DNA from: Humulus lupulus
Lineage: Eukaryota; Streptophyta; Magnoliopsida; Rosales; Cannabaceae
DNA length: 64,000 nucleotides
Assembly (NCBI RefSeq): GCF_963169125.1
Contig: NC_084796.1
Location: 214,089,948-214,153,947 of the forward strand
Reading direction: 5' to 3'
A program made the translations under genes and the position numbers. Shown here piece by piece: positions 24,516 to 29,066 of the stretch; position 1 is the first letter of the stretch; each line of letters begins with the position of its first letter. The notes beneath the pieces are model-generated. The model was given only the letters and a program-made list of their open reading frames with translations, searched no databases and was not told where the DNA came from.

Positions 24516-24544
24516 CACTACTACAAAACTGGGCTTTCCTGACA

Positions 24545-24970
24545 CCCAACCACGACAGTCAACTCTGTTGACTGTCGTAATTGCTTAGCGGGACTCTAAG
24601 CCGACAGTTAAAAACTGTAGGCATAGAGACCAACACCGACAGTTAATAACTGTCACTGTTGCTTTTGACTGTCGCTATTGACCCAAACGCCGACAGTTAA
24701 TTCGAGACCAATGCCGACAGTTAAAATGTGTCGCTATTGACCCCACACCGACAGCTAATTCGAGACCAACGCCGGCAGTTAAAATGTGTCACTATTGACC
24801 CCAATGTCGATAGTTAATTCGAGACCAATGTCGACAGTTGAAAGGTGTCGCTATTGACCCCAACGCCGACAGTTAATTCAAGACCAATGCCGACAGTTAA
24901 AAATTGTCGTTATTGACCTCAACGCCGACAATTAATAAAAGTCCAATAACGACAGTTATAAAATGTCGCC
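24545..24970 (+). repeat. CACTA1 left subterminal repeats
   Basis: More than fifteen copies of CGACAGTTAA or close variants, spaced by TTGACC or GAGACCAA phrases, fill this stretch. In the CACTA superfamily such repeats are the binding sites for the DNA-binding transposon protein. The motif is inverted relative to the right-end array. Confidence 0.85.
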
Positions 24971-25941
24971 GAAATTCAAATAAAAAAATCTTAAAATATA
25001 ATTAATAAATAATTTAATTTTAAAAATAAACTAAATTTTTTTAAATATATATTTATGAAAATTATATATATTTATTAAAAATTTTTAAAACTATTTTTTT
25101 TCTAAATTTTTCATATTATTAAATTTTGTATTTATAATAATTTTTATATTAAAATTTAAATTTAATTATATAATGAGATAATAGATGGATTTATGTCTCA
25201 AATTATGTATTATTTCTTGGAATAATTAATAAGTGACATTAAAATTTAGAAATGGAGAATAGATTGAATTTAAAGATTTTTACTTTTGTTAAATTGTATT
25301 ATTATATATTGAGAAATAATTAATAAGAAATCTTTAAATTTAATAAATAAAATTTATCAAGAATTAAAAATTTATATTTTAAATTATGAGAATCAAAATA
25401 AAAGAAAGTATATTATTATTGGAAATAAATATCAATATGCTTTTAATTTGAATAAAAAAATTTGAGTTAATTAAAAATGAATTTATATATTAAAATCAGA
25501 TTTTTTTTGTAATTAAATAAATAAGAAAAGTTTAAATAAAAAGAAAAATCTGTAAGTTAAAACTTTCCCTTTCCCTATTTTCCCTCTCTTCCACGAATCT
25601 CTCTCTCTCTCTCTCACTACTGTGTTGCTTCAGCTAGGCCCGAACGGTCGTCGTCCCATCGCTGGAGCCGTACATGTGCCAGCCAAGTCGAACCACTAGC
25701 CCTCGAAACGTTGACCCCCACGAGCTCACCACGGTACGCACCGCCCAGGGCTGTCAACCAACAGTCCGAAGCCGTCCGCCTCCTGCACTTTCTGGCAAGA
25801 TTCTGACTACCCCGAGCCTCCCCAAGCCTAACCAGCATCACCACCATACTCCTCGTGGTCTAAGCTTCAAAACCCACCAAAGGATCGGCCTCACTAGTGG
25901 TTGGAAAAAGAAAGGGTATTAGTCGGAATCCATGGAGGTCC

Positions 25942-26022
25942 GAAGCTTGTAGTGGAACCACCGCCGTTGTCACCATTAGATAGGTAAACAAAGCTTCAAA
26001 TTTCAAACTAGATATGTGTATG

Positions 26023-26066
<44 letters not shown>

Positions 26067-26145
26067 GACGATGAAATTGAAACAGGGGGAAGATCTCATC
26101 ATAGCGAATTTGGGGGATTCAAGGGCTGTTTTGCGAACTAAGAAC
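25942..26145 (+). pseudogene. Captured PP2C phosphatase fragment, two exons
   Basis: Exon a (25942-25983) encodes EACSGTTAVVTIR followed by TAG, where PP2Cs usually have Gln. It ends at a GTAAAC donor. Exon b starts at 26086 after an ACAG acceptor and encodes GEDLIIANLGDSRAVLRT. Together they match the SGTTAV...GDSRAV region of plant PP2C phosphatases, which contributes to the metal-binding fold. The intron between them (25984-26085) has kept its borders and grown a (TG)n microsatellite. The fragment was therefore copied from genomic DNA, not mRNA. It has no start codon and is not expected to make an enzyme. Confidence 0.85.
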
Positions 26146-26159
26146 TAGATGTGTGTATG

Positions 26160-26208
<49 letters not shown>
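26029..26208. repeat. (TG)n and (TA)n microsatellites within CACTA1
   Basis: A run of about 17 TG dinucleotides lies at 26034-26063 after a short TA run. A second compound (TA)n(TG)n tract lies at about 26158-26208. The two tracts have near-identical left flanks (AGATGTGTATGTATATA), which suggests a small local duplication around exon b. Confidence 0.8.
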
Positions 26209-26209
<1 letters not shown>

Positions 26210-26386
26210 CATGCAGGATTTTTGCAGACTTCCAGAAACGTTTTCATCCTAATTCCCAAATCTATATACCAATTCCAACATGGTCCAAGTGAGTTGTATT
26301 TAAAAATCACCACTGATGCTCAAAACTTTAAATAACATTTGTATCTTTGGATTTATTTCTGATTATATGATTCCAATATTTTACAG

Positions 26387-26492
26387 CCATCATAACATTT
26401 GGAGAGATGCCCAAGTTCCTCAGAGGACTTTGCATTACTATCACCCAGAATCTAAGGGGTTAGATTTTGATGGACTGGTGGATGACATTAAG
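26387..26492 (+). pseudogene. Captured aspartate aminotransferase exon
   Basis: This single exon follows a TTACAG acceptor and precedes a GTAAGTT donor. It encodes HHNIWRDAQVPQRTLHYYHP followed by ESKGLDFDGLVDDIK with no stop. The phrase HNIWRDAQVP plus YYHPESKGLDF is characteristic of plant (especially mitochondrial-type) aspartate aminotransferase, a PLP enzyme that interconverts aspartate and glutamate. Neither the PLP lysine region nor any flanking exon is present. It lies between the two pairs of PP2C exons, so it was either inserted into the PP2C copy or joined to it during capture. Confidence 0.88.
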
Positions 26493-26959
26493 GTAAGTTA
26501 ATGTACATTCTCAAAAATAATTATTAAGCTTTATACACAAATTTCAATCAGCAAAATTTGTTTACTCTAATCTAATGGCCAGCCTGCCAAACCTACTTAT
26601 AATGTCTATAGTCTTAACTGCAAAAACGAATTGCACTACATCACAATCACAAATATTTTAGGCGTGGTTTGATTTTGTTTCTCTACACCAGCACAAATTA
26701 GCAGATACTTCTTTTAACTATGGACGGTAGAAGTGTAATCTATATATATATTAAATATATGTATGTAGGAAGCTAGTATATTCTGGTGTATGATCACTCA
26801 TCATAATTAAAGTATCCAATTCTTATTGGGTAATATTTATTTTGTGTGAATGATGTATGTATCTATCTGGTTCTTGTATATAGAAAAAGTAAAAAGGTAG
26901 TCAGATCAGATCATTATCGTTGGAAAAATAAAGGCGCACATTGATGAGGGGAGAGCACA

Positions 26960-27150
26960 TATATCATTGTTGTCCCTGATGTCACCTACCATCGTCTCAC
27001 TCCCAAAGACCAATTCATGGTTCTCACCACTGATGGGGTAATTAAGAACTAAGAACTTACATTGATATTCTTAGATATGTTGGATTTTATAAATTATTTC
27101 TGATTGGTGTGTAAATGATGAATAGGTTTGGGATGTGTTGATGAATGGTC
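26960..27150 (+). pseudogene. Captured PP2C phosphatase fragment, two further exons
   Basis: The first exon ends at 27037 and encodes VVPDVTYHRLTPKDQFMVLT then TDG, followed by a GTAATT donor. The second starts at 27126 after an AATAG acceptor. The spliced join would read DGVWDVLMN, which is the conserved DGVWDVLSN block of plant PP2Cs that carries a metal-binding Asp. The intervening intron is 88 nt. Exons between this pair and the pair at 25942-26145 (the central PP2C part) are missing, so the donor gene was internally deleted. The reading diverges after about 27150. Confidence 0.85.
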
Positions 27151-27363
27151 TGCGATTTTCCTCTTCTTTCAGAATTAACATTATCCTGGTTTGAAGACTT
27201 GAGATGTTTTTGTTGCACTGTTATTTGTTTCAATCAAAATAATGGGCATGCTTGCCTCTGTCTATGCTTTGCTTTGTCTTTTGTTTCAACCAACAGTCGG
27301 AAACTTGTCTTTGTCTATTAACAGGAAATATTAATGAAAGTTATTTCTTATAAACCTTTATAG

Positions 27364-27600
27364 GAACCAGCCGCCCCACACATTACCATGTCTTGTTTGA
27401 TGAGAACAAGTTCAATGCTAATACCTTGCAAGTTCTCACGAACAATCTCTGCTACACGGAAATACTATTCATTTTTATTTTTTGTTCTCCAATTTCAACA
27501 TTCTATTGTGAACTATTTTTGTTGGGCCTGTTCTTGACCTGAATTTGGTTTTTCAGGTATGCAAGGTGCACCAGATCAGTCTCCATCGGTATGCCCTGTG
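27364..27600 (+). pseudogene. Captured ARGONAUTE PIWI-domain fragment, two exons
   Basis: Exon 1 (27364 to about 27457) follows a TTATAG acceptor and encodes GTSRPTHYHVLFDENKFNAN followed by TLQVLTNNLCYT. Exon 2 starts at 27557 after TTTTCAG and encodes YARCTRSVSI before diverging. These are near-invariant PIWI-domain blocks of plant AGO1/AGO5-class proteins. The HYHVL block carries the catalytic His of the slicer triad. The donor after exon 1 has lost the canonical GT, so splicing would be impaired. An imperfect 46-bp tandem duplication follows at about 27601-27690. Confidence 0.88.
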
Positions 27601-27699
27601 TTGCACTATCCCGAATACTATGGTATAAATTCCTATCCCGAGCCCGTTGCACTATCCCGAGCGCTATGGTATAAATTCCTATCTCAGATTCTAATTATT

Positions 27700-28794
27700 T
27701 TAAGTTTTAAAATTATTTGTGAGTTAGGAAACTAAAATGTAATTGTGTATGTTCACAGTATATTGAGAGTTAATTAGTATAATGAGTTGATCTGTGATTT
27801 TATTGGTGATTTTATTGGACTGCTCTGGGACTGTCATATGCCTTGTTTGCAGGTTTTTAAAATTTGGAGATGTCTGATTTGCAGCTGTTGTGCTGCTCCC
27901 TTTTCTAGAAATTTATGGACTCTTGTCTAGTTACTTTGCAACTCTAGTCTTATTCACAACTTGTTGTGTTGCTTTAACAACTTTGAATTAGATTTATAAA
28001 TTTGGATTAGTCTATTTCACAACTTGTTGTGTTGCTTTAACAACTTTGTCTGGTATGCTTGTTATGTTACTTTAACAAATGTTATTTGGTATGCTTGTGT
28101 TTCATATTAATGATCTATTATATTTATGTTCTCGGTGCTCTTATTTATAACTATATTATCTTTTTTTTTTCTTGCTAAGTACTATGGACTTAGAATCTGA
28201 AGCATCTATCTTGTTTGATAAGAAAAATACAACTTTTATATAAATCATTTTTGTGACTAAAGATCAGTCATCCGTTTTATTTCTTCTGCAACCTCAAGTT
28301 CTCTATTTATTTTAGTTTTGGTTTGACTTTAATGGTGTTTATTCTGTATTGTTGGCTAAAACTCTACTTGGATATTTAAGAGAACCAAGATAATTATTTA
28401 AGAGAACCAAGGCAACAAGAAATTGTTCAAGTTGTTGGGTATTATTTTCTTTCTTGCTTGTAAGAATTATGTACATTGAGGATTTGATGTATTATTTACA
28501 TTGAGAATAATGAATTTTTATTGAGAATTATAATAATTTTTTATTGAGAATTATTTAGTCTCGCGGGGATTTGATGTATTATTTATATTTCAATTGAATG
28601 AATAAACTTTGTATGTATATGAATTTTTATTATGATAAATAATTTTTTTTTTAACAAGGTATGATAATAATAATTAATTATGTGAGTTTTTTTATTTAAA
28701 TTTATATCAAACTTCAATTGTTAAAAATATAATTAAAAGTTTTAAAAAATATAAATCGAAAAATTATTATTTATATATATATAAATTTAATGTT
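27700..28794. other. CACTA1 interior, AT-rich, nothing recognised
   Basis: T-rich intron-like sequence with short repeats (for example two copies of ACTTGTTGTGTTGCTTTAAC near 27960 and 28020). I see no coding motif. Confidence 0.5.
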
Positions 28795-29045
28795 ACGACG
28801 ACGCTTATTAACTGTCGGCGTTGTCTGCAACGGCGACATTTATTAACTGTCGGTATTGCCAGCAATGGTGATACGTATTAACTGTCGACGTTGCTAGTAA
28901 CGACGACACCTATTAACTATCGGCGTAGTCAGCAATGACGACACTTATTAACTGTTGGCATAACTACTCCTACGCCGGCATAGGTAAATATGACAGTTAG
29001 TTGACTGTCATCATTGCTTAATAGCGACAGTTAAAAACTGTCGTG
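28795..29045 (-). repeat. CACTA1 right subterminal repeats
   Basis: About nine copies of TTAACTGTCGG variants with CGACGAC-type spacers. They are the reverse complement of the left-end array, as expected for CACTA elements. Confidence 0.85.
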
Positions 29046-29066
29046 AAAGCCCGTTTTGTAGTAGTG

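What the first reader, a model, noticed from the sequence alone, without database searches (positions are those of the whole stretch)
24516..29066. CACTA transposon carrying pieces of three unrelated host genes
Between intact CACTA ends with a perfect TGC duplication lie exon fragments of a PP2C phosphatase, an aspartate aminotransferase and an ARGONAUTE, all on the plus strand with introns kept. Gene capture by CACTA elements (transduplication) is known, but three functionally unrelated donors in one 4.5-kb element, with the aminotransferase exon lying between two pairs of PP2C exons, is striking. It may give chimeric transcripts or small RNAs. The chimera and its possible expression are inference.
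Basis: partly seen in the sequence, partly recalled or inferred. Interest (0 to 1): 0.9.

Follow-up and report, generated by a model that had tools for sequence, protein, structure and literature searches.

The report
Jumping gene assembled from host genes
A 4.5-kb jumping DNA element in what appears to be the hop genome carries pieces copied from at least four unlinked places in that genome, and related copies show the order in which the pieces were added; the kind of element is already known, but the record of how it was built is unusually clear.

Summary
Window 24516-29066 is a non-autonomous CACTA element with 14-bp inverted ends and a TGC target duplication, inside a retrotransposon. It carries PP2C, mitochondrial-type aspartate aminotransferase (AAT) and ARGONAUTE (AGO) pieces, introns included. 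In the window's own genome (hop, by inference) I found the PP2C-72 gene (C28), the AAT gene (C2, 482 of 494 bases), a probable AGO gene (C2) and a fourth source X (C3, no gene recognised). Two other copies with both ends and different target duplications (CAA, ATC) carry the same order of pieces, so the chimera moved as a unit. Relatives form a ladder: no captured piece in the slot, AGO only, AGO and PP2C, then AAT+X replacing part of PP2C; a sister lineage has a carotenoid dioxygenase piece there instead. Short overlaps at junctions fit gap repair with template switching; shuffling between members remains possible. This is a Pack-CACTA / Tgm-Express-type element, a known kind: five unrelated fragments in one CACTA are already published. 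The AAT copies show no sign of constraint. Expression could not be tested.

The parts
24513..24515 (.). Target-site duplication TGC, left copy
24516..24529 (+). 5' terminal inverted repeat CACTACTACAAAAC
24516..25948 (+). Left arm shared with other family members: subterminal repeats (24595-24969), AT-rich stretch, GC-rich stretch; ends at CGAAGCTT
   Evidence: (40 scored matches of 398 first-look candidates for 25560-25948); other members go on here with about 210 bp more of the family's own sequence
25949..26150 (+). PP2C piece 1: end of exon 2 (to 25983; last codon TAG at 25981-25983 where L009, L010 and L011 read CAG), intron 2 with (TA)n(TG)n, start of exon 3 (from 26086)
   Evidence: source gene C28:1184334-1185730 (-)
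26143..26206 (+). Second copy of the intron-2 microsatellite stretch, directly before AAT
   Evidence: (family D1)
26207..26700 (+). AAT piece: part of one exon (26207-26288), whole intron (26289-26386), whole exon (26387-26492), part of next intron (26493-26700)
   Evidence: source C2:14624027-14624520 (+), 482 of 494 bases
26703..26967 (+). Piece X, no gene recognised
   Evidence: source C3:6291968-6292254 (-), 83% with gaps, 91% over gap-free columns
26963..27141 (+). PP2C piece 2: end of exon 4, intron 4, start of exon 5
   Evidence: source-gene coordinates 2581-2748
27150..27281 (+). PP2C piece 3: end of exon 5 with stop codon and 3' flank; 126 bp of the source's exon 5 is missing before it
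   Evidence: source-gene coordinates 2875-3008
27306..27605 (+). AGO piece: part of an intron, exon GTSRPTHYHV...NLCYT, intron (splice donor changed), exon YARCTRSVSI, start of next intron
   Evidence: probable source gene C2:2741426-2741719 (+)
27978..29066 (+). Right arm shared with other family members, subterminal repeats at 28792-29044
29053..29066 (-). 3' terminal inverted repeat
29067..29069 (.). Target-site duplication TGC, right copy

Best explanation
A non-autonomous CACTA (Pack-CACTA) element that gained host sequence in steps while its family multiplied. Shown by sequence: ends and TSD; three mobilised copies with the same order of pieces; source loci on other contigs; relatives lacking AAT, lacking PP2C, or lacking AGO and PP2C. 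Inferred: (1) an AGO piece entered the family's own internal sequence; (2) most of a PP2C-72 gene, from intron 1 to past the stop, replaced the stretch between the left arm (CGAAGCTT) and AGO; (3) in this lineage the PP2C 5' part was lost, and AAT+X then replaced PP2C between exon 3 and late exon 4; (4) the result was spread by a transposase supplied in trans. Each step is best read as repair of a gap inside the element in which the copying strand switched to unrelated templates. The pieces show no sign of function and are decaying.
For: Ends and TSD. Copies L009 (TSD CAA both sides) and L010 (ATC both sides) with PP2C, AAT and AGO in the same order (L010 lacks PP2C exon 3 and the end of AGO). 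L011 lacks AAT and keeps the missing PP2C exon 4 in one piece. Left arm-AGO junction without PP2C in L012, and the same junction in the 391 bases read at C8:124.70 Mb (L066). Left arm running straight into the family's sequence beyond AGO, with no AGO and no PP2C, in the 381-401 bases read at L062, L063 and L064. Source genes: PP2C, AAT, probable AGO. AAT copies form a star round the source gene: 2 changes shared by all three, 9, 9 and 12 private, 1 shared by two, 488 gap-free columns. Shared changes are more for AGO (22 of 297) and PP2C (13 of 316 over three segments). Junction overlaps: PP2C (TG)n / AAT GTG; X / PP2C TATCAT in the L011 form of PP2C (ATCAT with the source gene); left arm / PP2C CTT; chance of at least 3, 5, 6 nt is 0.07, 0.009, 0.003 in random pairings of the PP2C and AAT loci. 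No further end of this family's type lies inside the element (up to 2 mismatches) and I saw none at the AAT/X borders. 13 nt of filler at the PP2C left junction of the C2, L013 and L016 copies equal the element's own AGO exon and are in neither source gene nor L012.
Against: The best AGO gene differs by 11-14% from the copies and X by 7-9%, so the exact sources may be other or lost loci. AGO-before-PP2C rests on two relatives that could be recombinants; only 391 bases of the second were read, and one search does not list it. PP2C shared changes are uneven (11 of 150, 2 of 91, 0 of 75 columns). Two of three short overlaps are no longer than chance allows, and the AAT/X join shows none that is clear. 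Borders are reused between lineages, which shuffling would also give. No autonomous partner was sought. All from one assembly.
Confidence: 0.82

Rival explanations
1. Shuffling between family members: separate elements each captured one gene, and recombination or gene conversion between them combined the contents.
For: The family is large (2996 first-look candidates, 40 scored). Boundaries are reused: left-arm CGAAGCTT is followed by three different sequences, and PP2C resumes near source position 2580 next to both AAT+X and the dioxygenase filler.
Against: AAT occurs in 3 element copies, all with PP2C and AGO; no AAT-only element among the 6 matches. The left borders of the two fillers differ (source 2278 against 2262 and 2353).
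Confidence: 0.3
2. Tandem-insertion model: two nearby elements with compatible ends, flanking host DNA, were mobilised as one unit that takes up the DNA between them (proposed for Pack-CACTA in Arabidopsis).
For: Stated for Pack-CACTA and other Pack-TYPE elements (passages of PMC8903248; PMC13317346). It could explain a first gain.
Against: AAT+X lies inside PP2C with no transposon end at its borders; sources lie on C28, C2 and C3; AGO entered the family's own internal sequence, which goes on unbroken in L062-L064.
Confidence: 0.1
3. The captured pieces have a present role: a chimeric transcript or small RNAs acting on AGO or PP2C.
For: Pieces are in gene orientation with several splice sites; Tgm-Express1 fragments are spliced into transcripts (passages of PMC1947982).
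Against: Stop in PP2C exon 2, deletion in exon 5, changed AGO splice donor. Summed over three AAT copies, 17 changes fall in 188 exon positions and 21 in 306 intron positions; 5 are silent and 12 replace a residue, where 19% silent is expected without selection (changes shared by copies are counted in each). No RNA data here.
Confidence: 0.1

Closest known systems
Tgm-Express1 of soybean (CACTA, 5.7 kb)
   Same: CACTA element with several unrelated host gene fragments, introns kept, similar size (passages of PMC1947982)
   Different: Five fragments and proven spliced transcripts there; here four sources, two further copies with the same order, source loci and order of gain read from relatives, transcripts untested
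Pack-CACTA / Pack-TYPE elements
   Same: CACTA ends, 3-bp duplication, host coding DNA, some from several loci (passages of PMC8903248)
   Different: The gain of AAT+X inside an already captured PP2C fits gap filling better than the tandem-insertion model of those papers
Pack-TIRs of animals made by gap filling / FoSTeST
   Same: Short overlaps at breakpoints, spread of multicopy forms afterwards (passages of PMC8277862)
   Different: Animal elements; the passage seen leaves open whether the model holds for Pack-MULEs in plants

Membership tests
CACTA (EnSpm) superfamily | Terminal inverted repeats starting CACTA | tested here: met
   14 of 14 bases paired
CACTA (EnSpm) superfamily | 3-bp target-site duplication | tested here: met
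   TGC here; CAA and ATC at L009 and L010; a local join of the flanks gives a frame open across the site
CACTA (EnSpm) superfamily | Subterminal repeats near both ends | tested here: met
CACTA (EnSpm) superfamily | Moved by a CACTA transposase | not tested
   No autonomous partner was searched for
Pack-CACTA (Pack-TYPE) | Non-autonomous: no transposase gene inside | tested here: met
   No frame of 150 aa or more, stop to stop, inside 24516-29066; transposase profiles were not searched
Pack-CACTA (Pack-TYPE) | Carries host gene sequence whose source exists elsewhere in the genome | tested here: met
   PP2C, AAT, probable AGO
Pack-CACTA (Pack-TYPE) | Multicopy: same content at several insertion sites | tested here: met
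   3 copies with AAT, three different TSDs
Tgm-Express type (expressed chimera) | Captured exons spliced into transcripts | not testable with these tools
   No RNA reads available

The most novel reading that the evidence does not exclude
The family is a step-by-step record, in a plant CACTA, of repeated gap filling: the same internal slot was opened and refilled in different lineages with different host DNA (AAT+X in one, carotenoid dioxygenase sequence in another, each matching two loci), with a doubled microsatellite and a scrap of the element's own AGO at the joins. That would be direct sequence evidence that template switching during gap repair, rather than tandem insertion, builds multi-gene Pack-CACTAs.
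Probability: 0.5. Interest if true: 0.65.

Novelty: new member of a known kind. Interest (0 to 1): 0.5.

Why it matters
How plant DNA transposons take up gene pieces is still argued. Here source loci, intermediate elements and junctions can be read in one genome, so the gap-filling, tandem-insertion and shuffling models make different predictions that can be checked base by base, and the order of gains can be dated. It is also a caution for annotation: exons of real gene families inside this transposon family could be called as genes.

Tried and rejected
Viral-contig search with the end sequence: 0 matches. Homologue search with the AAT piece: 7 proteins, two of them named as plants, useful for naming only. 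The idea that L016/L017 show PP2C before AGO was dropped: in the focal, L010, L011 and C2 copies PP2C runs on past source position 2918 to about 3008-3016, so those copies are better read as having lost AGO. The dioxygenase piece itself did not reach Pfam's model (best solved hit E 0.17); it was named from its source loci, which do (E 2.6e-9 and 2.3e-9). A fused enzyme was not pursued: in the unspliced frame a stop after RTKN separates PP2C exon 3 from AAT; spliced forms were not worked out by script. Not followed: the 73% match at C27:156543177, the second AGO gene C2:2763191, and 15 of the 16 dispersed AGO repeats. One search was a script that failed; one search replaced it.
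Full report
What was checked. The ends are exact: CACTACTACAAAAC at 24516-24529 and its reverse complement at 29053-29066, TGC on each side. Both ends carry arrays of a CGACAGTTAA-type subterminal repeat. No open frame of 150 aa or more lies inside. Pfam finds PP2C twice, aminotransferase class I/II and Piwi, each above the curated cut-off. The element, and a second CACTA-type element (29110-44739, TAC duplication) 43 bp away, both sit in one reading frame of a retrotransposon: joining only the short flanks gives a frame open across both sites. 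That frame looks like gag of a Ty3-type element; this name is from reading the protein, not from a call.

Host. A zinc-finger gene in the window is closest to Cannabis sativa (70%). A Humulus lupulus PP2C 72 record (P0070) matches the tandem PP2C copy at C28 1.177-1.180 Mb over its first 65 residues at 65 of 65 and its last 63 at 63 of 63; the middle row, which reads through introns, is 72% over 320 positions. Hop is therefore my inference.

Sources. PP2C: a gene with open exons at C28:1184334-1185730 (-), next to a tandem copy. AAT: C2:14624027-14624520, 482 of 494 bases, no gaps, with further AAT exons on both sides in the frames printed. AGO: a gene with the whole C-terminal part around C2:2741426-2741719 (Piwi E 2e-35 for its joined exons); the copies differ from it by 11-14% over gap-free columns, so it may be a sister of the true source. 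X: C3:6291968-6292254, no gene recognised in the three frames printed.

Anatomy. Left arm to 25948; PP2C exon 2 end, intron 2 with a (TA)n(TG)n run, exon 3 start; a second copy of that run; AAT from the middle of an exon (GTGCATGCAGG) through a whole intron and exon into the next intron; X; PP2C late exon 4, intron 4, exon 5 with a 126-bp deletion, stop and 3' flank; AGO; then sequence shared with other members and the right arm. In Pfam terms the two PP2C pieces are 97-129 and 188-217 of one domain; L011 still has 147-210.

Copies. The whole-element search scored 40 of 2996 first-look candidates and listed 104 matches, so it does not count the family. L009 and L010 have both ends, CAA and ATC duplications, and the same order. 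L010 lacks PP2C exon 3 and one microsatellite copy, as expected from slippage between the two runs, and the end of AGO. L011 has PP2C exon 2, an unbroken exon 4 and AGO but no exon 3 and no AAT, and its 3' end is cut. The search with window 26200-26970 returned 6 matches of 6 candidates: three element copies, the AAT gene, locus X, one 73% match.

Order of gains. In the 381-401 bases read at L062, L063 and L064 the left arm runs, past CGAAGCTT and about 210 bp of further family sequence, straight into the sequence that in L012 lies beyond AGO; L012's AGO is not there, and no match to the AGO gene was found. These three were not compared with PP2C; the arm is continuous where PP2C sits in other members. 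L065 and L067 skip the same region with weaker matches. In L012, and in the 391 bases read at C8:124.70 Mb (L066), the same arm is joined to AGO, one exon further upstream than in the focal element, with no PP2C (L012 gives only matches up to 49 bits to the PP2C locus). In PP2C-bearing members the arm stops at CGAAGCTT and AGO starts later, so PP2C replaced that stretch. L011 has PP2C and AGO without AAT. In C2:50.697 Mb and in the C3:261.13-261.14 Mb element the slot holds instead a carotenoid cleavage dioxygenase piece and adjoining sequence, from two places at C2:33.11 and 33.17 Mb (93% and 85%); L016 keeps 83 bp of it. The right border is near source position 2580 in the focal and C2 copies and L016; the left borders differ (2278, 2262, and 2353 in L013).

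Timing and selection. For AAT the three copies radiate from the source gene: 2 changes shared by all, 1 by two, 9, 9 and 12 private in 488 gap-free columns. About 2% private change per copy, at 6.1e-9 per site per year (rate in a figure legend of PMC9930403, passage), gives roughly 3 million years; transposons may change faster, so this is an upper guess. AGO and PP2C carry more changes common to the copies compared (22 of 297, five copies; 13 of 316, four or five copies), fitting earlier capture (gapped columns were dropped, L010 was left out of the long AGO comparison because its AGO is cut, and of L015-L017 only L016 was used, in one PP2C row). AAT exons are not protected.

Mechanism. Three junctions show short overlaps: GTG, TATCAT, CTT; only the 5- to 6-nt one is unlikely by chance (0.009 to 0.003), and the AAT/X join shows none that is clear. 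No transposon end was seen at the AAT or X borders, and the sources lie on different contigs or far apart. This fits filling of an internal gap with template switches, described for animal Pack-TIRs (passages of PMC8277862), better than the tandem-insertion model proposed for Pack-CACTA (passages of PMC8903248 and PMC13317346). Shuffling between members remains a live rival because borders are reused.

Known or new. Tgm-Express1 has five unrelated fragments with spliced chimeras (passages of PMC1947982); in maize, Pack-TYPE elements often hold more than one locus, Pack-CACTA the most (passage). So the element is a new member of a known kind. The listings of searches and passages of two hop genome papers, in which the word CACTA does not occur, showed no report of this element; that is not proof of absence from print.

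Noticed in passing
29110-44739: A second CACTA-type element (CACTATAAGAAATTTGGCAT / CACTACAAGAAATTCGGCAT ends, TAC duplication on both sides), 43 bp from the first and in the same retrotransposon frame, with another retrotransposon inside it (named by eye from its open frames).
   Followed up: partly
AGO matches, for example L057 (C8:33736500-33737700): 16 of 36 AGO matches are dispersed copies, 83-88% identical to the focal piece, that stop at the same point (query 361-363, about window 27542): another repeat seems to have multiplied an AGO fragment. One of the 16 was read.
   Followed up: partly
L016, L017, L047, L048, L051, L053: Six places hold PP2C exon 5 ending at source position 2918 (one at 2913); five of them start at 2678, so a PP2C piece of about 240 bp has itself become repeated. 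TIRs of L047, L048, L051 and L053 were not checked.
   Followed up: partly
43222-43618: A palindrome of about 400 bp (93% self-complementary), with a related stretch at 31534-31758.
   Followed up: no
C3:261128735-261142319 (L013 and beyond): A family member with the dioxygenase filler split by about 10 kb of other DNA between its two halves.
   Followed up: partly
25560-25948: The GC-rich end of the left arm looks like a 5' untranslated or first-exon region and is repeated in the genome (40 scored matches of 398 candidates); whether it is the family's own or an older capture is open.
   Followed up: partly
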